DNA of 64,000 bases. Origin: Schistocephalus solidus (Eukaryota > Platyhelminthes > Cestoda > Diphyllobothriidea > Diphyllobothriidae). A model generated the notes under the pieces. It worked only from the letters and a program-made list of their open reading frames with translations, was not told the DNA's origin and did no database searches. The stretch lies in the NCBI GenBank assembly GCA_017591395.1, contig WEDG01007483.1, positions 62,001 to 126,000 on the forward strand, in the 5' to 3' direction. Below, piece by piece: positions 1,335 to 63,870 of this stretch. Numbering within the stretch: position 1 is the first letter of the stretch; each line of letters opens with the position of its first letter. Made by a program: the position numbers and the translations under genes.

Positions 1335-2165
1335 CCAGGTGCTAAGTCGGAAGAAGAAAGAGCGTTCAGCGGGAGAGGTTTATTGGTTATCTGACGTTTT
1401 GAGTAGTTGTTTCGTCTACTCATTTTCAGAGACTGGATACACCATTATATGCCACCGTTCAGATTGCTCCTGGCCTGTCAACACTGGCTGTGTGCTGTGT
1501 CCCCTTAGTATCGCCGGTGTCTTCACCCCCACCGATTGCCTGTTCTGCTACGTCAGCTTGTGTCGGCCGCAGCGTCCCACTACGGCTTGGTCATCGTCAC
1601 ATCTGCTGCCGGGGGTTCACTGTGGTCTGGTCTAACGCCATCCTCGTTGGCCGCGGAGATAGTTGGTGGCCCCGGATATTCCATGCCGCTACTGTCTCCT
1701 GACAGGAAGTCTCTTAATAACATAAAGGGGGCTGGCAGATTAATGTGGCGTTTGACTGAGCAGTCGGTAGACTTCCAGGCTTCCTTTATCTGTCTCGAGG
1801 TGGGATCGTCACCTCAGCCCACAATTTCAGCGGCATTAAAGTTAAAGACGTTAACCGTCAGCGCAGCATGAGTTGCCACCTGTGACTTTGGGTCCAACCC
1901 TCGTACGTGCAACTGATGCTCGTGCATTCACGTTTGTAGCTGTCGCCCGGTTTCTCTTACATAGTTGCATATCCCGCAGCTGCACTGAAGTCGGTAGACG
2001 ACGGCTGACTTCTCCCGATTAGAAATGGGGTGTTTTGGCCGCATCAGTTGCTGACGGCATGTTGAGTAAGGCATGTGGGCAACTCATAGTCCAAGGTTTC
2101 GGAGGCACATTTTTATATACGGAATCCTCCGTTTCGATTTTTGTGGATCGCATATCGCGGCAGCT
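1335..2165 (-). mobile_element. Penelope-like element fragment (PLE-1a), C-terminal part and 3' region
   Basis: Read on the minus strand, this is collinear with the better copy at 3905-5640. The shared protein tract before the end of the element reads STSRQIKEAWKSTDCSV here against RTSRQIKEAWMSTKCSV in the other copy. This tract resembles the C-terminal end of Penelope GIY-YIG proteins. The noncoding tail is also shared, for example the TTTTGAGTAGTTGTTTCGT block near 1398. Frames are broken by several indels and stops, so it is a dead fragment with the reverse transcriptase missing. Confidence 0.7.
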
Positions 2166-3904: not shown

Positions 3905-5640
3905 TAGATAAAATGCGATTCACACGTAGTTATTCACCGTGAGAGGTATATTGTTTGTCGGACTTTTTGAGTAGTTATTTCGTTAACCCTTCTTCAGAGA
4001 CTGAATATTAATGCTCGCAGCTCGGATAATATGCCACTGTTTGGATTACTAGTGGCCTGGGAATACTGGCTGTGCGCTTCATCCCCCTGTGTGGTCGCAG
4101 CCACCACCCCCGCCGATCACCTGTTCTGACGCGTCGGCTCGTGTAGGCCACCGCATTGCACACCTGATTGGTTCCCTTCGGCCGCCTTCACCCCTGCTGA
4201 CCTCCTGTGGTGCCGCATCAACCGGCGTCAAACGTATTTTCTACCCCCGTCGTCGTTAGCCCCTGGTAGTTGGCGGCTCCGGTTGTTCCATGCCATGACG
4301 GTCGCCTGGACGATTCTTAAAACCTGGTAGGGGGTAGGTAAATTTATGTAGCAGTTGACTGAACATTTGGTAGACATCCAGGCTTCTTTTATCTGCCTTG
4401 ATGTGCGATCGTCACCTCGGCTCACAATTTCAGCGGCATCAAAGTTTATCAAGAACCCCATCTGTGTACCGTGGCTTGCTACCTGACTTTGGGTCTAGCC
4501 TTCGTAATTTTAATTGATGATCGTGCATTCACGTTTGTAGCTGAAGGCCGGGATCTTCAACATAGTTGCACATCCCGCAGCTGCACTGAAGTCGGTAGAA
4601 GACGGCTGACTTCTCCCGATTAGAAATGGGGTATTTTGGCCCCATCACGTGCTGGCGGATTTTTGAGGTAGGCCTGTGGGCAGCTATTCCGAGAGCCGCA
4701 AGAGATCGAGCTACGGTTTCGAAGATTCCTTTCATGTATGGAATACTCTGCCATGACTTTGGCTGACAACGCTCTTCCTTTCGCGTTCTCGGTGGCATTC
4801 GATTCCGTTCACTGAACTTTCGTGGATAGCCTTTGGCTGCAATTTTTACCTTTAGAAGCGTCATCTCGTCCCGTTTAGCAGCAGTCGTGCTGCAGTGCGT
4901 TTCTACTCGTCGGTATAGCCTGCGCAAACAACTTCAATTGTGTTGCCGCGTGTGGTTGCTGTTGTAGCTCAGCAGTTGCAACGTGTTCTGCGGTTTTCGA
5001 TATACAGATGTCCCCATTTTGCCGTCCGGTTGGCTACAGACGAGATCATTCGAGAACGGAAGGCCGCCCTCCACTTCTTCTTTCATCCTGAACTGTAGGT
5101 CGGGTAAAATCGAGTTTAGCTGCTCTCTATAGTAGGCGATTCTATACTGATAGGTGAGGACGAAAGTATTACCAACGTGGTGTGCCTAAAAATTTGCGTT
5201 CGTGCTCTTTGAACAATTGTCTCTCGAGCTTGTGCTGAACCTCCTCGGCAATGAGCTCAGAGATTAGGGGCCCCATTGGTGTAACCTTGGTTTACTCAGA
5301 TGTGATCCATTCGAAAGCTCAGATGGTCTTGAGGCAATGCTCCATGAGTTCTATGAGATACTGAGCTGTGAGCTGACCGTGGTTTTCATTTAAAAGTTGA
5401 TGTACAAGGTTACAGATGGTTTAAACCATAAGGGCAGACGAAGATGGTAGAGGAAGGTTTGGGAGATGAAGCAACTACTCGAAACGTCAAACAATCACTA
5501 TACATTTCCCGGTGAAAGTTCCTTCCTCCTACTTCTTCTTCCAATACTGCCGTATCTAACGTAGACTGTTTAATCCCACTAGAAAATCATATTCATTATA
5601 ACCTCCGGTGGGCATGATTTTTTCCCGTTTAATAGCCTTG
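3905..5640 (-). mobile_element. Penelope-like retroelement (PLE-1b): RT remnant plus GIY-YIG-like C-terminus
   Basis: Penelope-like elements encode a reverse transcriptase followed by a GIY-YIG endonuclease. Minus-strand translation gives RT core similarity near 5210-5270 (TPMGPLISELIAEEV, then HKLERQLFKEH). The usual YVDD-type site that follows appears as HVGN in a shifted frame. Then come the linker (IPYMKGIFETVARSLAALGI, about 4670-4735), a Cys-containing GIY-YIG-like start (FYRLQCSCGMCNYVEDPGL) and the C-terminal tract AAEIVSRGDDRTSRQIKEAW near 4380-4440. Several frameshifts and stops separate these blocks, and the catalytic aspartates are gone, so the copy is inactive. The 3' tail reaches about 3905. 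Confidence 0.8.
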
Positions 5641-38797: not shown

Positions 38798-38818
38798 TAT
38801 ATATATATATATATATAT
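38798..38818. repeat. (TA)n microsatellite
   Basis: About ten TA units at the join of block S1 and a 302-bp repeat copy. Confidence 0.95.
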
Positions 38819-39040
38819 TGTTAAAGTGGAACCGATAAATACAAGGGAGACCGGAATGGCCATTTCTGGCTTATTAGCCGTCATCAGCTAGTCATACCCA
38901 ATCCCAAGTGTGGCACACCTGGGATTCGAACCCGCGACCTTTGGTAATTGAGTCGAACGCTATACCATTGAGCCACGGGCTCGTTTTTTTGTCGGTTGCG
39001 ATCGGGTATATGATGATAGTATGTTGCTCACCGATCTGCT
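38819..39040 (-). repeat. Solo copy of the tRNA-derived 302-bp repeat between two (TA)n tracts
   Basis: On the minus strand: GTGGCTCAATGGTATAGCG (A box), GGTTCGAATCCC (B box), then CTGATGACGGCTAATAAGCC and AGAAATGGCCATTCCGG. The tRNA-like head is the best preserved in the window. It ends at (TA)n on both sides and is about 80 bp shorter than an array unit. Confidence 0.85.
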
Positions 39041-39049
39041 TATATATAT

Positions 39050-39119
<70 letters not shown>
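39041..39119. repeat. (TA)n microsatellite
   Basis: About 39 TA units with one AAA interruption near 39063. Confidence 0.95.
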
Positions 39120-39124
<5 letters not shown>

Positions 39125-39149
39125 GAAAATAGGGCTCGCCGTATATATA

Positions 39150-39293
39150 TGGCTGGGTATAATACCGTACTTCCGACATAGGTACTAGCTAAAAGCCCAG
39201 ACACGTGAAATTTCGGGTCTTACCCTAAAAAGTCATGTCCGAATCATCTGACTCCATGTCCTGCACTTAATAATTTCAGAAATTATTTCCTTG
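39150..39293 (-). repeat. Partial unit of the hammerhead satellite, ribozyme deleted
   Basis: It matches the flank of the units at 39641-40562: ATACCGTACTTCCGACATAG, AAGCCCAGACACGTG, then jumps to AAATTTCGGGTCT and the CCATGTCCTGCACTTAAT tract. The ribozyme core between these blocks is missing, with the breakpoint inside the CACGTG of stem III. Confidence 0.75.
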
Positions 39294-39315
39294 ATATATA
39301 TATATATATACCCAC

Positions 39316-39418
39316 TTATAGTGTCAATAAATCATCTTTACCACCAGTTTTCTGCCCCATGCATAGGTTGCCGTCGTGATGCCCTAACTGCATATCAGAA
39401 TAGTCCATCGGATTATGA
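39316..39418 (-). repeat. Inverted repeat block S1, right arm
   Basis: Reverse complement of 38697-38797 with a few substitutions; bounded by (TA)n at 39294-39310 and 39418-39438. Confidence 0.8.
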
Positions 39419-39438
39419 TTATATATATATATATATAT

Positions 39439-39624
39439 CGTAACAGGATTCACGGCCCCCAAAACCCCCCATGGCGTCAGTCTGTCGATGTAACCTCTCG
39501 GCCCCTTAACCCTCCAGCGTGACAATCCCAACTCTTACTTCTCATTTCGTCTGACGACGGGTTGGTGTAACCAGCTTGAAAATTCACGAGTAAACCTCGA
39601 TTTTCCGACGAGCCTTCTTTCTTC
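39439..39624. other. Unassigned 186-bp block between two (TA)n tracts
   Basis: Single-copy within the window, GC-rich (CACGGCCCCCAAAACCCCCC), flanked by (TA)n on each side like the repeat blocks around it. Possibly another TA-bounded element. Confidence 0.4.
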
Positions 39625-39686
39625 ATATATATATATATATGGCAAAGACGTTATACCGTACTTCCGACATAGATACAAGCTAAAAG

Positions 39687-39758
39687 CCCAGACACGTGTT
39701 TCGCCGATGTTTCTGCTGCTGTGTGACACAGCAACGAGGGGTTCGGCTCCTCAGTGGG
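39687..39758 (-). ncRNA. Hammerhead ribozyme, type I (copy a)
   Basis: Minus strand: stem I CCCA/UGGG; core CUGAGGA; stem II GCCGA/UCGGC capped by a ~35-nt arm with its own GCUGUG-UCA-CACAGC hairpin; GAAA; stem III region CACGUG; cleavage after UC (complement of 39691). All invariant core bases are present. Confidence 0.9.
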
Positions 39759-40002
39759 TCCCCTAGCGTTCTCTATGCGGTTTCTGAAATAATTAAGTGC
39801 AGGACATGGAGTCAGGTGCTTCGGACATGACTTTTTTAGGGTCAGACCCGAAATTTCAATGAACATTTGGGTCGAAGACAATCAACCACTCTGGAATAAC
39901 CACGTAATGCCCATTCTACAAACAAGTAGTACTACAAAGTAGTATGAATCTTATATGGCAAAGACGTTATACCGTACTTCCGACATAGATACAAGCTAAA
40001 AG

Positions 40003-40075
40003 CCCAGACACGTGTTTCGCCGATGTTTCTGCTGCTGTGTGACACAGCAACGAGGGGTTCGGCTCCTCAGTGGGT
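40003..40075 (-). ncRNA. Hammerhead ribozyme, type I (copy b)
   Basis: Same fold and core as copy a. Predicted cleavage lies 316 nt from that of copy a. Confidence 0.9.
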
Positions 40076-40356
40076 CCCCTAGCGTTCTCTATGCGGTTTC
40101 TGGTATATGGACTCCAGAGAATAATCGGGTAAATAATTTCTGAAATAATTAGAGTGCAGGACATGGAGTCAGGTGCTTTGGACATGACTTTTTAGGGTCA
40201 GACCCGAAATTTCAATGAACATTTGGGTCGAAGACAATCAACCACTGTGGAATAACCACGTAATGCCCATTCTACAAACAAGTAGTACTACAAGTAGTAT
40301 GAATCTTATATGGCAAAGACGTTATACCGTACTTCCGACATAGATACAAGCTAAAA

Positions 40357-40429
40357 GCCCAGACACGTGTTTCGCCGATGTTTCTGCTGCTGTGTGACAC
40401 AGCAACGAGGGTTCGGCTCCTCAGTGGGT
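40357..40429 (-). ncRNA. Hammerhead ribozyme, type I (copy c)
   Basis: Same fold and core as copy a, with one G fewer in the stem II arm. Predicted cleavage lies 354 nt from that of copy b. Confidence 0.9.
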
Positions 40430-40557
40430 CCCCTAGCGTTCTCTATGCGGTTTCTGGTATATGGACTCCAGAGAATAATCGGGTAAAATAATTTCTGAAA
40501 TAATTAAGTGCAGGACATGGAGTCAGGTGCTTCGGACATGAATTTTTAGGGTCAGAC

Positions 40558-40562
<5 letters not shown>

Positions 40563-40654
<92 letters not shown>
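40563..40654. repeat. (TA)46 microsatellite at the centre of an inverted repeat
   Basis: Uninterrupted TA run, 92 bp. The ribozyme satellite lies on both sides in opposite orientation. Confidence 0.95.
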
Positions 40655-40656
<2 letters not shown>

Positions 40657-40796
40657 AGAAACCATAGAGAACGCTGGGGACCCACTGAGGAGCCGAACCC
40701 TCGTTGCTGTGTGTCACACAGCAGCAGAAACATCGGCGAAACACGTGTCTGGGCTTTTTAGTTAGTATCTATATCGGAAGTACGGTATAACGTCTT

Positions 40797-40798
<2 letters not shown>
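40655..40798 (+). repeat. Inverted single unit fragment of the hammerhead satellite
   Basis: Reverse-oriented partner of the 40312-40460 region, bounded on both sides by (TA)n. It contains ribozyme copy d. It carries an extra T in TTTTTAG and an extra GT in the stem II arm. Confidence 0.9.
40681..40753 (+). ncRNA. Hammerhead ribozyme, type I (copy d, plus strand)
   Basis: CCCA (40681-40684), CTGAGGA (40685-40691), GCCGA (40692-40696), a stem II arm with GCTGTGT-GTC-ACACAGC, TCGGC (40733-40737), GAAA (40738-40741), CACGTG (40742-40747), TC (40748-40749) with cleavage predicted after 40749, and TGGG (40750-40753). Stem I pairs CCCA with TGGG; G10.1-C11.1, A15.1-U16.1 and C17 are all satisfied. 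ACACGTGT is self-complementary. Confidence 0.92.

Positions 40799-40857
<59 letters not shown>
40799..40857. repeat. (TA)n microsatellite
   Basis: About 29 TA units separating the inverted ribozyme unit from the tRNA-derived satellite array. Confidence 0.95.
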
Positions 40858-40859
<2 letters not shown>

Positions 40860-41125
40860 CCGCCATCAACCCGTTATACCCAACGCCAAGTGTGGACGAG
40901 CTGGGATTTGAACCCGCCAGGTTTGGCAATGGAGTCGAACGCACTACGACTGAGCCACGTGCCCGTTGTTTTATTGGTTTGGATTTGGAATATAATGGTA
41001 CTGAGAGACCTCACCGATCTGCCTTAGTAACATGTATGTTCCGTTGTGCCCTGGAGCTCAATTTAGAGCACTCGCAGTCGGTCACATGGTGACATGTAGC
41101 ATATGTTTATAAGGTTGAACTGACA
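40858..41125 (-). repeat. First unit of the tRNA-derived 302-bp satellite array
   Basis: It shows the B-box complement GGGATTTGAACCC at 40903 and the A-box complement GACTGAGCCACG near 40949. It is not part of the duplicated 5-kb block. Confidence 0.85.
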
Positions 41126-44100
41126 AAGACAAGGGAGACCGAAATGGCCATTTATGGCTTATTAGCAGTCACCAGCCAGATATAACCAATCTCAGCTAAA
41201 GTTGACCTGGGATTCGAACCCAGGAACTTTTGTAATTGAGTGGAAAGCACTAACATTGAGACCTGGGCCCATTATTTTGTCGGTTGCGATCGGGAATATA
41301 ATGGTAATGTGTTGCTCACCGATCTCCGTAAGGATCATGTATGTTCCGTTGTGCTCTGGTGCTCACTTTTGTGCCCTCGCAGGCGGTCGCATAGCTATTT
41401 GTAGCATATGTTGATTAGGTGGAACCGACAAAGACAATGGAGACCGGTGTGGCCATTTTTGCCTTATTAGCTATCATCAGCCATTTTTATACCCAATCAC
41501 ATGTATGGATGAACTGCGATTTAAACACAGGAACTTTGGTAATTGAGTCAAACACCCTAACATAGAGCATTGGCCCGTTGATTTATCGGTTACTATGAGG
41601 AAAATGATCAGAATCTGTGCCTCGCCTATCTGCTTAAAAACATGTGTGTTCCGTTGCGCGCTAGAGCTCAATTTGTAACCCTCGTAGATGGTCGCATAGT
41701 GACGTGTAGCATGTGTTGCTAAGGTGTAACCTGCAAAGACAAGGGAGACCGGAATGGCCATTTCTGACTTATTAGCAGTCACCAGCCAGTTATATCCAAT
41801 CCCATGTATAGACGAACTGGGATTTGAAGCCAGCAAATTTGGTAATTGAGTGGAAAGCCCTTCCATTGAGCCCCACGCCCGTTATTTTGTCGGTTGCGAT
41901 CGGAAAAATGGTAATGTGTGGCTCACTGATCTCCTTAAGGATCATGTTAGTTCCAGTGTGCCCTGGAGCTCAATTAAGAGCGCTCGCAGGCGGTCGCGTG
42001 GCGACATGTAGCATATGGTGATAAGTTGGAACCGACAAAGACAAGGGAAACCGTTGTGGCCATTCCTGGCTTATTTGCCGTCATCAGCCAGTTATATCCA
42101 ATCTCATGTATTGACGAACTGGGATTCGAACCTAGCAAATTTGGTATTTGAGTCAAACACTACCATAGATATTCAGCCCGTTGATTTATCGGTTGCCATC
42201 GGGAATATGATGATAATGAATGCCTCGCCGCTCTGCTTAAGGAAAATGAATGTCCCGTTGTGCGCTGGAGCTCACTTTTGAACCCGTGATCGCGGTCGAT
42301 TAGCGAAGTGTGTCATTTGTTGATAAGGTGGAACCCACAAAGACAAGGGAGACCGGAATGGCCATGTCTAGCTTATTAGCAGTCATCAGCCAGCAGTACA
42401 TAATCTCAAGTTTGACGACGTGGGATTAAAACCCACGAATTTGTGAATTGAGTCAAAAGCTCTACAATTGAGCCAGTGGCCCGTTGTTTTGTCTGTTGCT
42501 ATCGGGAATATAATGATAATGTGTGGCTCACTGATCTGCTGAATGAACATGTATGTTCTTTTGTACACTGGAGCTCAATATATAGCCCTCATAGGCGCTC
42601 GCATGGTGACATGTAGATGATAAGGTGGAACCGACAAAGGCAAGGGAGACTGCTTTGGCCATTTCTGGCATTTAAGACGTCATCAGCCAATTATACCCAA
42701 TCCCATGTATAGACGAACTGCGATTCGAACCCAGCAAATTTTGTATTTGAATCAAACACTTTACCATAGAGACTCGGCCCGTTGATTTATCGAATGATAT
42801 CAAGAATATGGTGATAACCTGTGCCTCTCCGATCTGCTTAAAAAACATTCATGTTCTGTTGTGCGCTGGAGCTCAATTTATATCGGTCATAGTTGTTCGA
42901 AAAATGACGTGTAGGATGTGTTGATAAGGTGTAACCGACACAGACAAGGGAGACCAAAATGAAAATTTCGGGCTTATTAGCAGTCACCAGCCAGATATAC
43001 CCAATCTCAAGTAAAGATGACCTGGGACTCGATAGCAGGAACTTTGCTCATTGAGTGGATAGCCCTACCATTGAGCCCCGGGCCCGTTATTTTGTCGGTT
43101 GCGATCGGGAATATAATGGTAATATGTGGCTCACCGATCTGCTTAAGTAACATGTATGTTCCGTTGTGCCCTGGAGCTCAATTAAGAGCACTCAAAGGCG
43201 GTCGCATAGCGACTTGTAGCATATGTTGATAAGGAAAACCAACAAAGACAAGGGAGAACGGAATGGCCATTTCCGGCTTATTAGCCGTCATCAGCCAGTT
43301 ATACCCAATCCCATGCATGGACGAACTGGGATTCGAACACAGTTGCTTTGGTAATTGAGTCAAACGCTCTAACATAGAGCATTGGCCCGCTGGTTTATCG
43401 GCTGCTATCAAGAATATGGGGACAAGCTGTGCCTCGCCATTCTGATTAAAAAACATGTATGTTCCTTTGCGCACTGGAGCTAAATTTATAGCCATCGTAG
43501 ATGGTCGCATGGCGACGCGTAGTATATGTTGATAAGTTGGAACCGACAAACACAAGGAAGACCGGTGTGGCCATCTCTGGCTTATAAGCCATCATCAGCC
43601 AGTTATACCCAATCCCATGTATAGACGAACTGGGATTCAAACCCAGGAACTTTGGTAATAAAGTAGAAAACCCTACCATTGAGCCCCGGGCCCGTTGTTT
43701 TGTCAGTTGAGATCGTGAATATAATGGTAATGTGTGGCTCACCGATCTGCTTAAGGAATATATATTTTCAATTGCGTGCTGGAGCTCAAGTAAGAGCACT
43801 AGCAGGCGGTCATATGGCGACATGTAACATATGTTGAAAATGTCGAGCCAACAAAGACAATGGAGCCCAGAATGGCCATTTATGGCTTATTATCCATCAT
43901 CAGGCAGTTAAACCCAATCCCAAGTACAGATGAGCTGGGATTAAACCCATGAAATTTAATAATTGAGTCAAACGCTCTAACAAAGACCATTGCCCGTTGC
44001 TGTACCGGTTGTTATCAAGAGTATGGTGATAATCTGTGCCCCGCCGATCTTCTTAAGGAAAATGTATGTTCCGTTGCGCCAGCTATACTCAATCTCAAGT

Positions 44101-46128
44101 ATGACGACGTGGGATTCAAACCCAAGAAATTGGGAATTGAGTCGAAAGTTCTACAATTGACCCAGTGGCCGGTATTTTTGTCGGTAGCGATAGGGAATAT
44201 AATGGTAATGTGTGGCTCACCGATCTGCTTATGGAACATATAATATCAGTTGTGCCCTGGATCTCAATTTAGAGCACTCGCAGGTGGTCGCATGGCGACG
44301 TGTAGGATATGTTGATAAAAGTGGAACCGACAAAGACAAGGGGAGACCAGTGTGGCCGTTTCTGGCTTATTAGCTTTCATCAGCCTGCTACACCAATCTC
44401 AGGTATGGAAGAACTGGGACTCAAACCCAGGAAATTTGTGAGTAGAAAGCCCTACCATTGAGCCCCGGTTCCGTTATTTTGTCGGTTGCGAACGGGAATA
44501 TAATGGTAATGTGTGGCTCACCGATATGCTGAATGAACATGTATGCTCCATTTTGCCCTTTAGCTCAATTAAGAGCACTCGCAGGTGGTCGCATGGCGAC
44601 GTGTAGGATATGTTGATAAAGTGGAACCGACAAAAGACAAGGGGAGACCAGTGTAGCCGTTTCTGGCTTATTAGCTTTCATCAGCCTGCTATACCAATCT
44701 CAGGTATGGAAGAACTGGGACTCAAACCCATGAAATTTGTGAGTAGAAAGCCCTACCATTGAGCCCCGGTTCCGTTATTTTGTCGGTTGCGAACGGGAAT
44801 ATAATGGTAATGTGTGGCTCACCGATATGCTGAATGAACATGTATGCTCCATTTTGCCCTTTAGCTCAATTAAGAGCACTCGCAGGCGGTCGCATAACTA
44901 CATGTAGCATATTTTGATAAGGTGAAACAGACAAAGAAAAGGTAAACTGGTTTTGACATTTCTGGCTTATTAGCCGTCATCGGCCTGTCATACCCAATCT
45001 CACGTATGGACGAACTGGGATTTAAACCACTGAACTTTGTTTATTGAATCAAGCGATCTACCACAGATTCTCGGCCCGTTCTTTTGTCGGTTACGATCGG
45101 GAATATAATGATAAAGTGTGGCTCCGCGATCTGCTTAAGGAACCTGTATGTTCTGTTTTGCGATGGAGAACACTTTAGAACACTCGCTTGCAGCCTCATA
45201 ACGACGTGCAGCATATGTTGATAATGTCGAGCCGACAAAGATAATGGAGCCCAGAATGGCCATTCCTGGCTTAGTACCCGTCTTCAGCAAAGCATACCAA
45301 ATCCCATGTATGGACGAATTGGGATTCGAACACGAAAATATTGGTAATTGAGTCGAACCCTCTACCATTAGCCACAGACCCGTTGTTTGGTCAGAATCGA
45401 TTGAAAATAAAAATGATAGTGTGGCTCCCAGACCTGCTTAAGTAAAAATATGTTCCGTTGTGCGCTGGTGCAAACTTTTGTGCCCTTGCAGGCAGTCGCA
45501 TATTAATGTGTATCATATGCTGCTAATATGGAACTGACAAGAACAAGGGAAAACGGATTGACAATTTCTGGCTTATTAGCCGTCATCAGCCAGTTATACC
45601 CAATCCCACGTATAGATGAACTGGAATTCAAAGCCATGAACTTTGGTAATTGATTCAAAAGATCTAACATGGAGCATTCAGCCCAATTGATTTACCGGTT
45701 GCCATCAAGAACATAGTGATAATCTGTGCCACGCCGATCTGCTTAATGAAAAATGTATGTTCTGTTGCGCGCTGGAGCTCAAGTAAGAGCAGTTATCGCA
45801 GGTCGATCTTATGGCGACATGTAGCATATGTTGATAAGGTGGAGCCGACAAAGACAAGGAAGGCCGGAATGGCCCTTTCTGGCTTAATAGCCGTCATCAG
45901 TCAGTTTTACCCAATCCCAAGTATGCATGAACTCGGATTAAATAACCAGAAATTTGTTAATAGAGTCAATTTTTCTACCATAGAGACGCGGCACGTTGAT
46001 GTTAATCTGTGGCTCACCGATCTGCTTAAGGAACATGTATGTTGCGATGTTCGCTTGAGCTCAATTTAGAACCCTCACTTGCTGTACCATAGCGACAGGT
46101 AGAATTTGTTGATATCGTGGAACCGAGA
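41126..46128 (-). repeat. tRNA-derived satellite, higher-order repeat copy 1 (about 5003 bp, 17 units)
   Basis: B-box positions (variants of GGGATTCGAACCC on the plus strand) are at 41209, 41515, 41819, 42121, 42422, 42720, 43024, 43328, 43632, 43937, 44111, 44416, 44717, 45017, 45321, 45622 and 45935. That is a ~302-bp unit with one short step of 174 bp. Minus-strand unit order: tRNA-like head (TGGCTCAATGGTAGAGCG, GGTTCGAATCCC), CTGATGA hairpin GAAA motif, CTTGTCTTTGTCGGTTCC, GTCGCCATGCGAC dyad, GAGCTCC, GGAACATACATGTTCC dyad, GATCGCAACCGACAAAA. Neighbouring units differ visibly, but the whole set recurs 5003 bp further on. No protein is encoded; frames within it are repeat shadows. Confidence 0.93.
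43266..43334 (-). ncRNA. Hammerhead-like motif in the tRNA-derived repeat (best copy)
   Basis: Minus strand: UC (43331-43330), CCAGUU (43329-43324), a 23-nt loop, AACUGG (43300-43295), CUGAUGA (43294-43288), CGGCU-AAUA-AGCCG (43287-43274) and GAAA (43273-43270). Stem I has 6 bp, stem II 5 bp and all core boxes are present in type III order, but stem III would have only two base pairs. Most other units have one or more changes. Candidate only. Confidence 0.5.
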
Positions 46129-49100
46129 AAGACAAGGGAGACTGGAATGGCCATTTATGGCTTATTAGCAGTCACCAGCCAGATATAACCAATCTCAGCT
46201 AAAGTTGACCTGGGATTCGAACCCAGGAACTTTTGTAATTGAGTGGAAAGCACTAACATTGAGACCTGGGCCCATTATTTTGTCGGTTGCGATCGGGAAT
46301 ATAATGGAAATGTGTTGCTCACCGATCTCCGTAAGGATCATGTATGTTCCGTTGTGCTCTGGTGCTCACTTTTGTGCCCTCGCAGGCGGTCGCATAGCTA
46401 TTTGTAGCATATGTTGATTAGGTGGAACCGACAAAGACAATGGAGACCGGTGTGGCCATTTTTGGCTTATAAGCTATCATCAGCCATTTTTATACCCAAT
46501 CACATGTATGGATGAACTGCGATTTAAACACAGGAACTTTGGTAATTGAGTCAAACACTCTTACATAGAGCATTGGCCCGTTGATTTATCGGTTACTATG
46601 AGGAAAATGATCAGAATCTGTGCCTCGCCTATCTGCTTAAAAACATGTGTGTTCCGTTGCGCGCTAGAGCTCAATTTGTAACCCTCGTAGATGGTCGCAT
46701 AGTGACGTGTAGCATGTGTTGCTAAGGTGTAACCTGCAAAGACAAGGGAGACCGGAATGGCCATTTCTGACTTATTAGCAGTCACCAGCTAGTTATATCC
46801 AATCCCATGTATAGACGAACTGGGATTTGAAGCCAGCAAATTTGGTAATTGAGTGGAAAGCCCTTCCATTGAGCCCCACGCCCGTTATTTTGTCGGTTGC
46901 GATCGGAAAAATGGTAATGTGTGGCTCACTGATCTCCTTAAGGATCATGTTAGTTCCAGTGTGCCCTGGAGCTCAATTAAGAGCGCTCGCAGGCGGTCGC
47001 GTGGCGACATGTAGCATATGGTGATAAGTTGGAACCGACAAAGACAAGGGAAACCGTTGTGGCCATTCCTGGCTTATTTGCCGTCATCAGCCAGTTATAT
47101 CCAATCTCATGTATTGACGAACTGGGATTCGAACCTAGCAAATTTGGTATTTGAGTCAAACACTACCATAGATATTCAGCCCGTTGATTTATCGGTTGCC
47201 ATCGGGAATATGATGATAATGAATGCCTCGCCGCTCTGCTTAAGGAAAATGAATGTCCCGTTGTGCGCTGGAGCTCACTTTTGAACCCGTGATCGCGGTC
47301 GATTAGCGAAGTGTGTCATTTGTTGATAAGGTGGAACCCACAAAGACAAGGGAGACCGGAATGGCCATGTCTAGCTTATTAGCAGTCATCAGCCAGCAGT
47401 ACATAATCTCAAGTTTGACGACGTGGGATTAAAAACCCACGAATTTGTGAATTGAGTCAAAAGCTCTACAATTGAGCCAGTGGCCCGTTGTTTTTGTCTG
47501 TTGCTATCGGGAATATAATGATAATGTGTGGCTCACTGATCTGCTGAATGAACATGTATGTTCTTTTGTACACTGGAGCTCAATATATAGCCCTCATAGG
47601 CGCTCGCATGGTGACATGTAGATGATAAGGTGGAACCGACAAAGGCAAGGGAGACTGCTTTTGGCCATTTCTGGCATTTAAGACGTCATCAGCCAATTAT
47701 ACCCAATCCCATGTATAGACGAACTGCGATTCGAACCCAGCAAATTTTGTATTTGAATCAAACACTTTACCATAGAGACTCGGCCCGTTGATTTATCGAA
47801 TGATATCAAGAATATGGTGATAACCTGTGCCTCTCCGATCTGCTTAAAAAACATTCATGTTCTGTTGTGCGCTGGAGCTCAATTTATATCGGTCATAGTT
47901 GTTCGAAAAATGACGTGTAGGATGTGTTGATAAGGTGTAACCGACACAGACAAGGGAGACCAAAATGAAAATTTCGGGCTTATTAGCAGTCACCAGCCAG
48001 ATATACCCAATCTCAAGTAAAGATGACCTGGGACTCGATAGCAGGAACTTTGCTCATTGAGTGGATAGCCCTACCATTGAGCCCCGGGCCCGTTATTTTG
48101 TCGGTTGCGATCGGGAATATAATGGTAATATGTGGCTCACCGATCTGCTTAAGTAACATGTATGTTCCGTTGTGCCCTGGAGCTCAATTAAGAGCACTCA
48201 AAGGCGGTCGCATAGCGACTTGTAGCATATGTTGATAAGGAAAACCAACAAAGACAAGGGAGAACGGAATGGTCATTTCCGGCTTATTAGCCGTCATCAG
48301 CCAGTTATACCCAATCCCATGCATGGACGAACTGGGATTCGAACACAGTTGCTTTGGTAATTGAGTCAAACGCTCTAACATAGAGCATTGGCCCGCTGGT
48401 TTATCGGCTGCTATCAAGAATATGGGGACAAGCTGTGCCTCGCCATTCTGATTAAAAAACATGTATGTTCCTTTGCGCACTGGAGCTAAATTTATAGCCA
48501 TCGTAGATGGTCGCATGGCGACGCGTAGTATATGTTGATAAGTTGGAACCGACAAACACAAGGAAGACCGGTGTGCCATCTCTGGCTTATAAGCCATCAT
48601 CAGCCAGTTATACCCAATCCCATGTATAGACGAACTGGGATTAAAACCCAGGAACTTTGGTAATAAAGTAGAAAACCCTACCATTGAGCCCCGGGCCCGT
48701 TGTTTTGTCGGTTGAGATCGTGAATATAATGGTAATGTGTGGCTCACCGATCTGCTTAAGGAATATATATTTTCAATTGCGTGCTGGAGCTCAAGTAAGA
48801 GCACTAGCAGGCGGTCATATGGCGACATGTAACATATGTTGAAAATGTCGAGCCAACAAAGACAATGGAGCCCAGAATGGCCATTTATGGCTTATTATCC
48901 ATCATCAGGCAGTTAAACCCAATCCCAAGTACAGATGAGCTGGGATTAAACCCATGAAATTTAATAATTGAGTCAAACGCTCTAACAAAGACCATTGCCC
49001 GTTGCTGTACCGGTTGTTATCAAGAGTATGGTGATAATCTGTGCCCCGCCGATCTTCTTAAGGAAAATGTATGTTCCGTTGCGCCAGCTATACTCAATCT

Positions 49101-51131
49101 CAAGTATGACGACGTGGGATTCAAACCCAAGAAATTGGGAATTGAGTCGAAAGTTCTACAATTGACCCAGTGGCCGGTATTTTTGTCGGTAGCGATAGGG
49201 AATATAATGGTAATGTGTGGCTCACCGATCTGCTTATGGAACATATAATATCAGTTGTGCCCTGGATCTCAATTTAGAGCACTCGCAGGTGGTCGCATGG
49301 CGACGTGTAGGATATGTTGATAAAGTGGAACCGACAAAGACAAGGGAGACCAGTGTGGCCGTTTCTGGCTTATTAGCTTTCATCAGCCTGCTACACCAAT
49401 CTCAGGTATGGAAGAACTGGGACTCAAACCCAGGAAATTTGTGAGTAGAAAGCCCTACCATTGAGCCCCGGTTCCGTTATTTTGTCGGTTGCGAACGGGA
49501 ATATAATGGTAATGTGTGGCTCACCGATATGCTGAATGAACATGTATGCTCCATTTTGCCCTTTAGCTCAATTAAGAGCACTCGCAGGTGGTCGCATGGC
49601 GACGTGTAGGATATGTTGATAAAGTGGAACCGACAAAGACAAGGGAGACCAGTGTAGCCGTTTCTGGCTTATTAGCTTTCATCAGCCTGCTACACCAATC
49701 TCAGGTATGGAAGAACTGGGACTCAAACCCAGGAAATTTGTGAGTAGAAAGCCCTACCATTGAGCCCCGGTTCCGTTATTTTGTCGGTTGCGAACGGGAA
49801 TATAATGGTAATGTGTGGCTCACCGATATGCTGAATGAACATGTATGCTCCATTTTGCCCTTTAGCTCAATTAAGAGCACTCGCAGGCGGTCGCATAACT
49901 ACATGTAGCATATTTTGATAAGGTGAAACAGACAAAGAAAAGGTAAACTGGTTTTGACATTTCTGGCTTATTAGCCGTCATCGGCCTGTCATACCCAATC
50001 TCACGTATGGACGAACTGGGATTTAAACCACTGAACTTTGTTTATTGAATCAAGCGATCTACCACAGATTCTCGGCCCGTTCTTTTGTCGGTTACGATCG
50101 GGAATATAATGATAAAGTGTGGCTCCGCGATCTGCTTAAGGAACCTGTATGTTCTGTTTTGCGATGGAGAACACTTTAGAACACTCGCTTGCAGCCTCAT
50201 AACGACGTGCAGCATATGTTGATAATGTCGAGCCGACAAAGATAATGGAGCCCAGAATGGCCATTCCTGGCTTAGTACCCGTCTTCAGCAAAGCATACCA
50301 AATCCCATGTATGGACGAATTGGGATTCGAACACGAAAATATTGGTAATTGAGTCGAACCCTCTACCATTGAGCCACAGACCCGTTGTTTTGTCAGAATC
50401 GATTGAAAATAAAAATGATAGTGTGGCTCCCAGACCTGCTTAAGTAAAAATATGTTCCGTTGTGCGCTGGTGCAAACTTTTGTGCCCTTGCAGGCAGTCG
50501 CATATTAATGTGTATCATATGCTGCTAATATGGAACTGACAAGAACAAGGGAAAACGGATTGACAATTTCTGGCTTATTAGCCGTCATCAGCCAGTTATA
50601 CCCAATCCCACGTATAGATGAACTGGAATTCAAAGCCATGAACTTTGGTAATTGATTCAAAAGATCTAACATGGAGCATTGCTAATTGATTTACCGGTTG
50701 CTATCAAGAACATAGTGATAATCTGTGCCACGCCGATCTGCTTAATGAAAATGTATGTTCTGTTGCGCGCTGGAGCTCAAGTAAGAGCAGTTGCAGGCTA
50801 TCTTATGGCGACATGTAGCATATGTTGATAAGGTGGAGCCGACAAAGACAAGGAAGGCCGGAATGGCCCTTTCTGGCTTAATAGCCGTCATCAGTCAGTT
50901 ATACCCAATCCCAAGTATGCATGAACTCGGATTAAATAACCAGAAATTTGTTAATAGAGTCAATTTTTCTACCATAGAGACGCGGCACGTTGATGTTAAT
51001 CTGTGGCTCACCGATCTGCTTAAGGAACATGTATGTTGCGATGTTCGCTTGAGCTCAATTTAGAACCCTCACTTGCTGTACCATAGCGACAGGTAGAATT
51101 TGTTGATATCATGGAACCGAGAAAGACAAGG
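46129..51131 (-). repeat. tRNA-derived satellite, higher-order repeat copy 2
   Basis: Near-identical to 41126-46128 at an offset of 5001-5006 bp, including the 174-bp short step (48943 to 49117 region) and the nearly duplicated units around 49300-49890. Differences are scattered single bases and small indels, for example 43268 against 48272 (GGCC against GGTC) and 45785-45815 against 50788-50812. Confidence 0.93.
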
Positions 51132-51795
51132 GAGACTGGAATGGCCATTTATGGCTCAATAGCCGTAATCAGCCAGCTATACCCAATCTCAAGTATGTAC
51201 GACCTGGGATTCGAGTTCACGAACTTTGGAAATTTAGTCAAAATGTCACCACGTGAGCCACGGGCCCGTTGTTTTGTCGGTTGCGATCGGATATAAAATG
51301 GAAATGTGAGTCTCACCGACTTGTTTAAGGAACATGTATGTTCCGATGTACCCTGGAGCTCAATTAAGAGCACTCGCTGGCGGTCGAATAAATACGTGTT
51401 GCATATGTTGATATGGTGGAACTGACAAAGACAAGGGAGAACGGTGTGGCCCTTTCTGACTTTTGAGCCGTCATTAGCCAGCTTTACCTAATCCCATGTA
51501 TGGATTTACTAGGATTTGAACCCAGGAACTTTGGTAATTGAGTCAAACGCTTTACTATTGAGACACGAGTTCGTTGTTTTGTCGGTCGCAATCGGGAAAT
51601 CAATGGTACAATGTGCCTCACTGATCAGCCGGAGGAACATGAATGTTCCATTGTGCCCTGGAGCTCAATTTAGAGCCCTCGCCGGCAGTCGTATAGCAAA
51701 GTGCAGCATATGCTGATAAGGTGGAACCGACAAAGTCAAGGGAGGCCGGTAAGGCCATCTCTGACTGGTTAGCAGTCATCAGCCAGCTATACCCT
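51132..51795 (-). repeat. End of the tRNA-derived satellite array, two further units
   Basis: B-box complements at 51206 and 51512. These units differ from those after copy 1 of the 5-kb block, so they lie outside the duplication. The array ends inside a unit after CAGCCAGCTATACCC. Confidence 0.88.
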
Positions 51796-56820: not shown

Positions 56821-56880
56821 AATAGGGAAATCAAATGTGATTCACCTACATATCCCTCAAATATACTGATACTGATACTA
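56821..56880 (+). promoter_or_regulatory. CR1 3'-terminal stem-loop (copy I)
   Basis: AATAGGGAAATCAAATGTGA, TTCACCTACATATCCCT: outer AGGGA/TCCCT and inner TGTGA/TTCAC-type pairing, followed by CAAATATACTGATACTGATA. Confidence 0.5.
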
Positions 56881-58440
56881 GAACGCTGGGTGGCACACGA
56901 AGGAGCCGAAACCCTCCTTGCTGCCTCACTCAACAGTCAAAACATTGGTAAAACATGTGTCTGGGCTTTTCGCTACTACCTATGTTGGAAGTACATTATA
57001 GCGTCTTTGCAAAATAGGAGTAATACTACTTGTTAGTAGAATGGGCAGTACGTGGTTATAACACAGTGGTTCATTGTCTTCGTCGCAATTTTTTGGTGCA
57101 GTTTCGGTTCTGAAACTTTTAAAGTTATGTCTGGATCACCTTCACCGTTGTTCTAAACTTTTTATTTTCAGCAATTATATTCCTTGATTATTCCCTGTAG
57201 TTCATTTACACGAAACCGTATAGACAACGGTTGGTGCCCAACTAAGGAACCGAAACCCTGGTTGCGGCATCAGGCGCAAGTAGAAAAATCGGATATAGAC
57301 AAATCAGGGCTTTTAAATACTACCCATATCGGAAGTGCGGCATTAGGTTTTTCCCATAAAATATTCATAGTACTAGTTTTTAGAATGGGCAGTTCGTGGC
57401 TAGTCGCCCGTCCATCATTAATTTCGTCCCAAATGTTCATTAACATTTAGCATCTGAGCCTAAAGAGTATAGCTCCAGTCACGTAGCACCATGTCCTGAT
57501 ATTAAGTCTTCAGCAATTATTTCCTTTATTATTCTCTGTAGTTCATGTACACGAAAACGCATGGAGAACGCTGGGGGCAAATAATGAGCTGAAACCCTCG
57601 TCGCAGCGTCCGACACCATTAGAAACATTGGCAAAAGACATGTACGGGCTTTTAACTTCTACCCATGTCAAGAGTACGGTAGTAGGTTTTTCCCATATAA
57701 GATTCCCACTACTTGTTATTAGAATAGGCAGTAGATGGTTATTCCACAGTGGTTCATTTTCTTCTTTCCAATTTTTCGTTGTATGTTTTGGTCTGAAACT
57801 TATTAATTATTGTCCGGTTCACCTTCACAATTGTCCTCCACTTTGTAATCGCAGCAATTATTTCCCTGATTATTCGCTGTATTCCATATACCAGAAACTG
57901 CAAGGACGACGCTGCGGGCCAATTAGTGTGCCGAAACTCTCGTTGCGGCGTCTTTTGGCAGTAGAAACATCGGCAAAATACATGATCAGCCTTTTAGCTT
58001 CTAGCCATGTCGGAAGTACGGTATTAGCTTTTTCCTAAATAAGATTCATACTACGTGTTAGTAGAATGGGCAGTACGCAGTTATTGCACAGTTGTTTATT
58101 GTCTTCTTCCAAATTTTTCATTGTAAGTTCGTGTCTTAAACTTATTAAGTCATGTGCGGTTCAACTTAACCCTTGTTTTTGACTTCTTAATTTCAGGACT
58201 TCTTTCCTGGATTATTCTCTGCAGTTCATATACCAGAAACTGCATGGGGAACGCTGGGTGGCAAATAATGAACCGAAACACTCGTTGTTGCATCAGGCGC
58301 CAGTAGAAAGATCACCAACCATGCGTCTGGGCTTTTAGCTACTACCCATGTCGGAAGTACGGAATTATGTTTTTACCATATAAGATCCATTGTACTTGTT
58401 TGTATAATGGTCAGTTCGTGGCTAATCAACGCATGCACAC
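56881..58440 (+). repeat. Hammerhead satellite array 2, old and decayed (about 343-bp units)
   Basis: Units begin near 56881, 57225, 57566, 57906 and 58249 with variants of GAACGCTGGG. The same landmarks as array 1 recur: GAGCCGAAACCCT, CTGGGCTTTT, GGAAGTAC, TTAGTAGAATGGGCAGTACG and CAGTGGTTCATTGTCTTC. The ribozyme core is damaged in every unit: the CTGAGGA box reads CGAAGGA, CTAAGGA, or is lost, and GAAA reads TAAA, AAAA and similar. Units differ strongly from one another, so the array is much older than array 1. Confidence 0.85.
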
Positions 58441-63515: not shown

Positions 63516-63870
63516 ATAAAACATTCCCTTGCCCTAAACCTAACGCTAGCCTTAACGCAAACCTGAACCACAATCCTAATCTTATATCTTACCCTTCCTT
63601 AAACCGTAACAGTATGGTTAATAGAAATCCTAGCCTTAGCCCTAAACGTATGCTCAGTTTACCTTAACACTCACATTAACGCAAACCTGAACCGCAATCC
63701 TAATCTTATATCTTACCCTTCCTTTAACCCTAACAGTACGGTTAATAGAAATCCCAGCCTTAGCCCTAAACGGGTGCTCAGTTTAACCTTACCACTTACA
63801 TTAACCGTACGCTTAAATCTAACCCCAAATTGAACCCTAACCCTAATGGTAAACCAAACCCTATTTGCCC
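63516..63870 (-). repeat. Degenerate telomere-like tract, C-rich on plus strand, with a 124-bp duplication
   Basis: CCTAAACCTAACG, AACCCTAACCCTAATGG and similar. Two copies of a ~124-bp block start with TTAACGCAAACCTGAACC at 63552 and 63676 and share CTAATCTTATATCTTACCC and TTAGCCCTAAACG. Orientation is opposite to the tract at 61978-62140. Confidence 0.75.

What the first reader, a model, noticed from the sequence alone, without database searches (positions are those of the whole stretch)
39641..40798. Tandem satellite in which every complete unit carries an intact type I hammerhead ribozyme
Four copies (three minus-strand, one plus-strand) show CUGAGGA, a GCCGA/UCGGC stem II, GAAA, a UC cleavage site and a CCCA/UGGG stem I, with no core mismatch. 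The stem I halves lie 65 nt apart yet match perfectly, so chance is very unlikely. Units of 316 and 355 bp without coding capacity fit retrozymes, small non-autonomous retroelements that spread as circular RNAs cut by their own ribozymes. The near-identity of the copies suggests recent activity. Known before: hammerheads occur in schistosome SM-alpha repeats, Penelope-like elements and metazoan retrozymes. Whether this particular family has been described I cannot tell.
Basis: partly seen in the sequence, partly recalled or inferred. Interest (0 to 1): 0.95.

Follow-up and report, generated by a model that had tools for sequence, protein, structure and literature searches.

The report
Tapeworm ribozyme repeat with Penelope-like insertions
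A repeated piece of what is probably tapeworm DNA carries a self-cutting RNA motif, and the way its copies sit in the genome looks like the work of a known jumping-gene family (Penelope-like elements), which bears on how such 'retrozymes' move.

Summary
Four copies (three minus, one plus) carry an intact type I hammerhead; 165 of 209 copies in fetched loci and window keep the strict core. Three Rfam hits are full length but below cut-off (22.8 against 34 bits); pair counts give no covariation support.

The family is dispersed over a 604-Mb genome, tapeworm by protein hits. 3' ends fall at two internal sites, A and B (29 of 38), each followed by (TA)n; 5' ends scatter. Genome-wide, 3' against 5' junctions: A 408 to 3; B up to 641 to 13. 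Eight head-to-head pairs occur. Arrays of 0.1-15 units run through the cleavage site. PLEs of this genome (RT plus GIY-YIG) show two-site (TA)n 3' ends and head-to-head starts too.

Best reading: a metazoan retrozyme copied by PLE reverse transcriptase, probably from circles. Circular RNA, ribozyme activity and PLE dependence are untested. The element type is known; the junction evidence appears new within my searches.

The parts
39636..39951 (-). Retrozyme unit 3 of the array (316 bp, internal deletion against the 355-bp unit); its 3' end is site B, next to (TA)n at 39626-39639
39952..40306 (-). Complete retrozyme unit (355 bp)
40307..40558 (-). 5'-truncated retrozyme unit (starts at consensus position 103)
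39685..39760 (-). Type I hammerhead ribozyme, copy 1
   Evidence: RF00163 22.8 bits, below cut-off 34; direct reading; strict scan
40001..40076 (-). Type I hammerhead ribozyme, copy 2
   Evidence: RF00163 22.8 bits, below cut-off; direct reading; strict scan
40356..40430 (-). Type I hammerhead ribozyme, copy 3
   Evidence: RF00163 22.8 bits, below cut-off; direct reading; strict scan
40681..40753 (+). Type I hammerhead ribozyme, copy 4; predicted cleavage after 40749
   Evidence: direct reading; strict scan; not listed by cmscan
40655..40799 (+). Short 'solo' form (consensus about 203-349) with (TA)n on both sides; same form complete in 6 of 8 loci fetched at such junctions
39162..39288 (.). 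Head-to-head pair of retrozyme fragments: minus-strand piece 39162-39207 and plus-strand piece 39206-39288; outer ends at a changed stretch running into GCCATATATATA (site-B-like, left) and at site A (right)
39626..39639 (.). (TA)n next to the 3' end (site B) of the minus-strand array
40563..40654 (.). (TA)46 between the minus-strand array and the plus-strand fragment
40799..40857 (.). (AT)n next to the 3' end (site B) of the plus-strand fragment
56880..58382 (+). Old array of the same family (5 copies, 73-79% identity), ribozyme cores decayed
4315..5315 (-). Penelope-like element fragment (relative of the proposed moving machinery)
   Evidence: tblastn with L026 PLE protein
1571..2155 (-). 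Second Penelope-like element fragment
   Evidence: tblastn

Best explanation
The repeat is a metazoan-type retrozyme of a tapeworm (host group inferred from protein hits): a 354-nt non-coding unit with one type I hammerhead. Shown from sequence: intact ribozyme motifs, genome-wide copies, two favoured 3' ends with (TA)n, scattered 5' ends, head-to-head pairs, and PLEs of the same genome with the same junction types. Inferred: tandem transcripts cut themselves, monomers are ligated to circles (known in other animals), and the reverse transcriptase-endonuclease of Penelope-like elements nicks short AT-rich DNA, starts cDNA synthesis on the RNA at a fixed internal site (B, 50-55 nt past the ribozyme cut, or A), often from both strands, and runs round the circle a variable number of times before joining. 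The (TA)n is then either made at the start step or grows later.
For: 3' ends: 11 of 38 at site A, 18 of 38 at site B, 2 at a third TATA, 7 elsewhere; (TA)n beside 31 of 38. 5' ends: 36, scattered; Fisher 5e-8. Background (TA)4 in random 30-mers: 49 of 9333. Genome-wide junctions, 3' against 5': A 408 vs 3; B up to 641 vs 13 (the 641 are for a pattern covering B and C, and the 100 that were listed are all B or close variants). Site C reads CCATATA like B, yet gave 0 of those 100 3' junctions and 75 exact 5' junctions, so TA homology alone does not set the start. Eight head-to-head pairs. Arrays 0.1-15 units, non-integer; 22 of 32 exceed one unit; no 5' end within 5 nt of the cut (nearest 292 and 308; cut at 299). 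Within-array heterozygosity 0.077 against 0.170 permuted. PLEs: RVT_1 and GIY-YIG, both sub-threshold; 8 of 12 3' ends at two sites about 40 nt apart, 7 of these 8 beside (TA)5 or longer; an inverted PLE 3' piece at the start of 6 of 9 truncated copies; junction counts 170 and 58. One position of the 305-bp satellite was hit by retrozymes in four loci and by a PLE in one. The Anolis PLE starts cDNA internally at two sites, cuts AT-rich DNA and extends both strands (PMC11167929). Ribozyme cut to start: local PLE 42-44 and 81-85 nt, Anolis 82-89, retrozyme B 50-55.
Against: No sequence likeness between PLE and retrozyme start windows (closest of four pairs matched by 359 of 1000 shuffles). Site A lies 235-237 nt past the cut, which the spacing idea does not explain. 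7 of 38 3' ends are elsewhere, and 3 of the 16 outer ends of the head-to-head pairs. Some arrays (L010, L023, L024) are about as mixed inside as between arrays, which fits linear multimers or later recombination as well as circles. LINEs are also present; the genome-wide LINE control did not complete and the local one is small. Loci were among the best-scoring copies, a biased sample. The degenerate 5' patterns had non-zero reversed controls (62, 14), though the texts counted are exact. No RNA data.
Confidence: 0.72

Rival explanations
1. Satellite DNA spread by unequal crossing-over, with a relic or neutral hammerhead. The (TA)n tracts are microsatellites grown from the unit's own TATA motifs.
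For: Long head-to-tail arrays; some arrays as mixed inside as outside; the unit contains CATATA motifs.
Against: Junctions are strongly one-sided (A 408 vs 3, B up to 641 vs 13), and two equal CCATATA motifs behave oppositely (B at 3' ends, C at 5' ends). TA growth inside a unit should give both sides alike. Short single insertions and head-to-head pairs at dispersed sites.
Confidence: 0.12
2. The element is moved by a LINE reverse transcriptase as an ordinary SINE-like parasite.
For: LINE-type reading frames occur in the window; 5' truncation and inversion also occur with LINEs (recalled).
Against: No poly(A) or LINE tail seen at the 3' ends; in a small local check of segments around LINE frames, 1 of 38 alignment ends (19 rows, some pairs twice, many not true element ends) lay beside (TA)4, and that one is a retrozyme site. 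PLEs share the junction type.
Confidence: 0.12
3. A variant of the best reading: linear multimeric transcripts, not circles, are the PLE template (as Frangieh et al. propose for PLE itself); the ribozyme is not needed for integration.
For: Arrays with mixed haplotypes (L010, L023, L027); Anolis ribozyme mutants still integrate in vitro (PMC11167929); the local PLE ribozyme mostly reads CCGACGA, a changed core.
Against: Within-array heterozygosity is less than half of permuted; L016 has a private variant in 14 of 14 units; intact retrozyme ribozymes should cut long multimers (inference).
Confidence: 0.35

Closest known systems
Metazoan non-LTR retrozymes (Cervera and de la Pena 2020, PMC7229834; parts 1-4 of 6 read)
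   Same: Type I hammerhead, 2-bp stem III with tetraloop, ~350-nt non-coding unit, low GC, dimers to long multimers, PLEs in the same genome
   Different: Two favoured internal 3' ends with (TA)n, head-to-head pairs and a 150-nt solo form; none is described in the parts read
Penelope-like elements: Poseidon of Anolis (Frangieh et al. 2024, PMC11167929; parts 1-3 of 4 read) and Adineta Penelope (PMC3846280; passages read)
   Same: Internal start at two sites, AT-rich target, both strands used, inverted pieces at the 5' end, partial tandems, hammerhead upstream of the start site
   Different: This unit codes for no protein, its two sites are 172 nt apart (not ~40), and its start windows share no sequence with the local PLE
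Schistosome SM-alpha and W elements (PMC8490949; passages read)
   Same: Flatworm repeats of similar size with type I hammerheads
PLE hammerheads (minimal type I; Cervera and de la Pena 2014, not held, known through citations)
   Same: Type I, short stem III, core CTGANGA
   Different: Here stem II is long with an internal loop, and stem III has two base pairs

Membership tests
Hammerhead ribozyme type I (RF00163) | Score at or above the Rfam gathering cut-off | tested here: not met
   22.8 bits against 34, though model 1-45/45 is covered
Hammerhead ribozyme type I (RF00163) | Conserved core CUGANGA, GAAA, UH cleavage site, three stems opening in stem I | tested here: met
   Direct reading; 165 of 209 copies with strict core; no strict hit outside arrays in 241 kb nor in 400 kb of shuffles
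Hammerhead ribozyme type I (RF00163) | Covariation of the stems | tested here: inconclusive
   Does not beat shuffled controls in 28 hand-picked copies of one species
Hammerhead ribozyme type I (RF00163) | Self-cleavage | not testable with these tools
   needs in vitro transcription
Metazoan retrozyme | Non-coding unit of about 170-400 nt with one type I hammerhead in dispersed tandem copies | tested here: met
   354-nt consensus; 119 match rows on 39 contigs, many of the rows ~50-nt flank pieces
Metazoan retrozyme | Circular and linear monomer RNAs | not testable with these tools
   no transcriptome available
Metazoan retrozyme | Retrotransposed rather than only recombined | tested here: met
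   favoured 3' ends, variable 5' ends, head-to-head pairs; no clean empty site shown
Non-autonomous partner of Penelope-like elements | PLEs present in the same genome | tested here: met
   RVT_1 and GIY-YIG, both below their Pfam cut-offs; 89 matches from 87 scored of 37,219 loose first-look candidates; relatives in Spirometra and Sparganum
Non-autonomous partner of Penelope-like elements | Same junction architecture as the PLE | tested here: met
   two 3' sites plus (TA)n and head-to-head starts in both; same satellite position hit by both; spacing of the two sites differs
Non-autonomous partner of Penelope-like elements | Shared start-site sequence | tested here: not met
   no likeness above shuffles
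SM-alpha family | Sequence homology to SM-alpha | not tested
   no schistosome sequence in the collections used

The most novel reading that the evidence does not exclude
The hammerhead region is the docking and measuring device for PLE reverse transcriptase: the enzyme binds there and starts cDNA a set distance downstream, on circles, from both nicked strands. At the start it adds (TA)n by slippage, as its relative telomerase adds repeats. In the 305-bp satellite 0 of 11 unfilled copies of the window have (TA)4 at the target, while filled sites carry 10-52 nt of TA at four retrozyme ends and 68 nt at a PLE end. Retrozymes would then keep the ribozyme fold in order to be copied, not only to be cut.
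Probability: 0.22. Interest if true: 0.82.

Novelty: new variant of a known kind. Interest (0 to 1): 0.62.

Why it matters
[quoted passage not shown] About a thousand pattern-matched 3' junctions in one genome (408 and up to 641) give a fingerprint that resembles PLE biochemistry. That turns a guess into something a purified PLE and a 354-nt RNA can test. It also offers a reason why PLEs and retrozymes both keep hammerheads upstream of a cDNA start.

Tried and rejected
Element ends read from the first genome search looked like an element starting at the ribozyme cut.

Covariation as proof of the ribozyme: tried, does not beat shuffles; dropped as support.

Sequence likeness of PLE and retrozyme start sites: tried, none.

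A second hammerhead in the neighbouring 305-bp tRNA-like satellite: suggested by regular expressions (54 of 91 copies with CTGANGA...GAAA) but not listed by Rfam in L041, with a C.A mismatch at the base of stem II and a rival hairpin; left as a lead.

(TA)n as a pre-existing microsatellite target: weakened by unfilled satellite copies (0 of 11 with (TA)4) and by three LINE copies with only a short TATAT or GATAT where L025 has (TA)10. The other flank of L025 did not match, so no clean empty site was obtained and this stays open.

RF00163 search of the whole genome: not completed. Genome-wide LINE control: not completed. Species name: not given by any tool. Model R1 was built and not used.

Rows dropped: arrays under 85% identity were left out of the end tally, and so were ends within 15 nt of a locus edge; units 6% or more from consensus were left out of the within-array test (153 of 166 kept); L001 was left out as a duplicate of the window. 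Of the 39 contigs, 31 were examined (window and L002-L031); C124, C7584, C1018, C7691, C4613, C1772, C366 and C837 were not fetched. The 166 units come from 27 loci and the window, the end tally from 30 loci and the window. Lists capped at 100.

Full report
Observation. The window stretch 39641-40798 holds a head-to-tail array on the minus strand (units starting 316 and 355 bp apart) and a plus-strand fragment. Each of the four copies reads CTGAGGA, GCCGA/TCGGC, GAAA, a two-base-pair stem III with the palindromic loop ACGT, a UC cleavage site and CCCA/TGGG. Rfam lists no hammerhead at its gathering cut-off and three full-length type I matches at 22.8 bits against 34 when relaxed; the fourth copy was not listed. 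A strict structural scan found 136 distinct cores in 241 kb (30 loci and the window), all inside the family's arrays, exactly four in the window, and none in 400 kb of shuffled sequence. Over loci and window, 165 of 209 copies keep a strict core. Pair counts on 28 hand-picked copies do not beat shuffles, so covariation is no support.

Where it is. The window lies in a 604-Mb genome of 8019 contigs. A conserved protein of the window has six hits, of which the three named by a source are tapeworms; the PLE proteins resemble those of Spirometra and Sparganum, up to 85%, and of Schistocephalus. The host is therefore probably a diphyllobothriid-type tapeworm; no tool names it. The 355-bp unit gave 119 match rows on 39 contigs, many of the rows being ~50-nt flank pieces, and only 40 of 1016 candidates were scored. 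166 complete units from 27 loci and the window give a 354-nt consensus; the median unit is about 1.1% from it. Older, decayed relatives lie at 56880-58382.

Ends. For 38 array 3' ends away from locus edges (30 loci and the window, arrays of at least 85% identity), 11 fall at consensus 175-185 (site A, ACCCGAT) and 18 at 354 (site B, TTTGCCATATA), 2 at another TATA, and 7 elsewhere; 31 of 38 have a (TA)n beside them. The 36 5' ends are scattered, 11 beside (TA)n (Fisher p 5e-8). Random 30-mers outside arrays hold (TA)4 in 49 of 9333 cases. Genome-wide counts agree: 408 exact 3' junctions at A, reversed control 0, against 3 exact 5' junctions (among 30 matches, reversed control 14); 641 matches of a pattern made for sites B and C, reversed control 0, of which the 100 listed were all B or close variants, against 13 5' junctions at B. 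Site C also reads CCATATA, yet shows 75 exact 5' junctions (of 96 matches, reversed control 62) and none among the 100 listed 3' ones. Growth of a microsatellite or simple TA annealing would not give opposite behaviour at two equal motifs. My reading of C is that 5' joining is helped by TA microhomology (inference).

Shapes. Eight head-to-head pairs occur (L003, L012, L017, L018, L019, L020, L025 and window 39162-39288); three of their sixteen outer ends are not at A, B or the third TATA. Thirty-two arrays with both ends visible span 0.1 to 15 units, not whole numbers; 22 exceed one unit, so cDNA passed the ribozyme cut. No 5' end lies within 5 nt of the cut at 299 (nearest 292 and 308) and one 3' end (304) lies near it. 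A short form, (TA)n, consensus 203-349, (TA)n, is complete in 6 of 8 loci fetched at site-C junctions; the window's plus-strand copy has this form.

Template. At variable sites, heterozygosity inside arrays is 0.077 against 0.170 when unit labels are permuted (153 units, 500 permutations, minimum 0.1465). L016 has a private variant in 14 of 14 units and L021 in 11 of 11. This fits one circle copied round and round. But L010, L023 and L024 are about as mixed inside as outside, so linear multimers or later recombination are not excluded.

Machinery. An open reading frame with reverse transcriptase and GIY-YIG matches (both below their Pfam cut-offs) lies beside the array of L026. A genome search gave 89 matches from 87 scored of 37,219 loose first-look candidates. 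In 12 such Penelope-like loci the 5' ends vary, and 8 of 12 3' ends lie at two sites about 40 nt apart, 7 of these 8 running into (TA)5 or longer; the other four end elsewhere or run on. In 6 of 9 truncated copies an inverted piece of the PLE 3' end sits at the 5' end. Exact junction counts in the genome are 170 and 58, reversed controls 0. Retrozyme arrays lie beside 4 of the 12 PLE loci, one of which was chosen through a retrozyme. One position of the 305-bp satellite was hit by retrozymes in four loci (L003, L012, L019, L051) and, in L012, by a PLE ending at its first site. These are features reported for Penelope elements: internal start at two sites, AT-rich target and extension of both strands in the Anolis PLE (PMC11167929, parts 1-3 of 4 read), inverted pieces and a 31-bp tail in Adineta (PMC3846280, passages read). 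From ribozyme cut to cDNA start I count 42-44 and 81-85 nt in the local PLE, 82-89 in the Anolis template printed in that paper, and 50-55 for retrozyme site B. Site A, at 235-237 nt, does not fit this spacing, and the start windows share no sequence.

The (TA)n. Filled sites in the 305-bp satellite have 10-52 nt of TA at four retrozyme ends and 68 nt at a PLE end, while 0 of 11 satellite copies of the window have (TA)4 there. Three LINE copies read only a short TATAT or GATAT where L025 has (TA)10 beside the retrozyme, though the other flank of L025 does not match. So the tract is probably made at or after insertion. Slippage by the PLE enzyme is one reading, later microsatellite growth another. 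In a small check of segments around LINE frames, 1 of 38 alignment ends (19 rows, some pairs listed twice, many not true element ends) lies next to (TA)4, and that one is a retrozyme site.

Compared with what is known. The element matches published metazoan retrozymes in size, ribozyme type, tandem copies and company of PLEs (PMC7229834, parts 1-4 of 6 read). Those authors proposed PLEs as candidate movers; a review of December 2024 still says LINEs or PLEs (PMC11722881, passages read). My paper searches listed no study of retrozyme insertion junctions or of a tapeworm retrozyme: 25 of 31 papers listed; 20 of 47; 11 of 11; 15 of 2,380; 15 of 31; 7 of 7. Subscription papers, preprints and supplements were not searched. 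Flatworm hammerhead repeats as such are known (SM-alpha, W elements; PMC8490949, passages read).

Verdict. Real, and a family of a known kind of element, new as far as these searches show. The added value is the insertion fingerprint, which supports PLE-driven copying and makes it testable. Activity, circles and PLE dependence remain to be shown at the bench.

Noticed in passing
window 40860-51794 (minus-strand sense): An 11-kb array of ~305-bp repeats with tRNA-like text: one copy reaches the Rfam tRNA cut-off (29.3 bits), three matches in L041 lie below it. Its consensus also reads like a weak hammerhead (CTGATGA..GAAA, palindromic stem III), 54 of 91 copies with both motifs, but Rfam does not list it in L041.
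   Followed up: partly
window 40944-50963: Within the 305-bp array a block of about 5 kb seems duplicated: the series of copies at 40944-45969 recurs nearly unit by unit at 45997-50963.
   Followed up: no
L044 (G000:C7481:11000-14000), L043, L037: The local PLE has an ATG inside a minimal hammerhead next to its start sites, as in Anolis; nearly all copies listed read CCGA(C/A)GA, and only L037 keeps CTGACGA.
   Followed up: partly
window 38798-40857: All (TA)5 or longer tracts of the 64-kb window lie in this 2-kb cluster.
   Followed up: partly
window 39540-39625 and L046 left flank: By eye, the same dispersed host repeat leads up to (AT)n and a retrozyme in both places.
   Followed up: no
L028 1-3812 and L018 1373-2955: Older subfamilies (about 80-93% identity) lie directly next to young copies in one array, as if new insertions joined old ones.
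   Followed up: no
window 63552-63805: Two copies of a 124-bp repeat, 92% matches, near the window edge.
   Followed up: no
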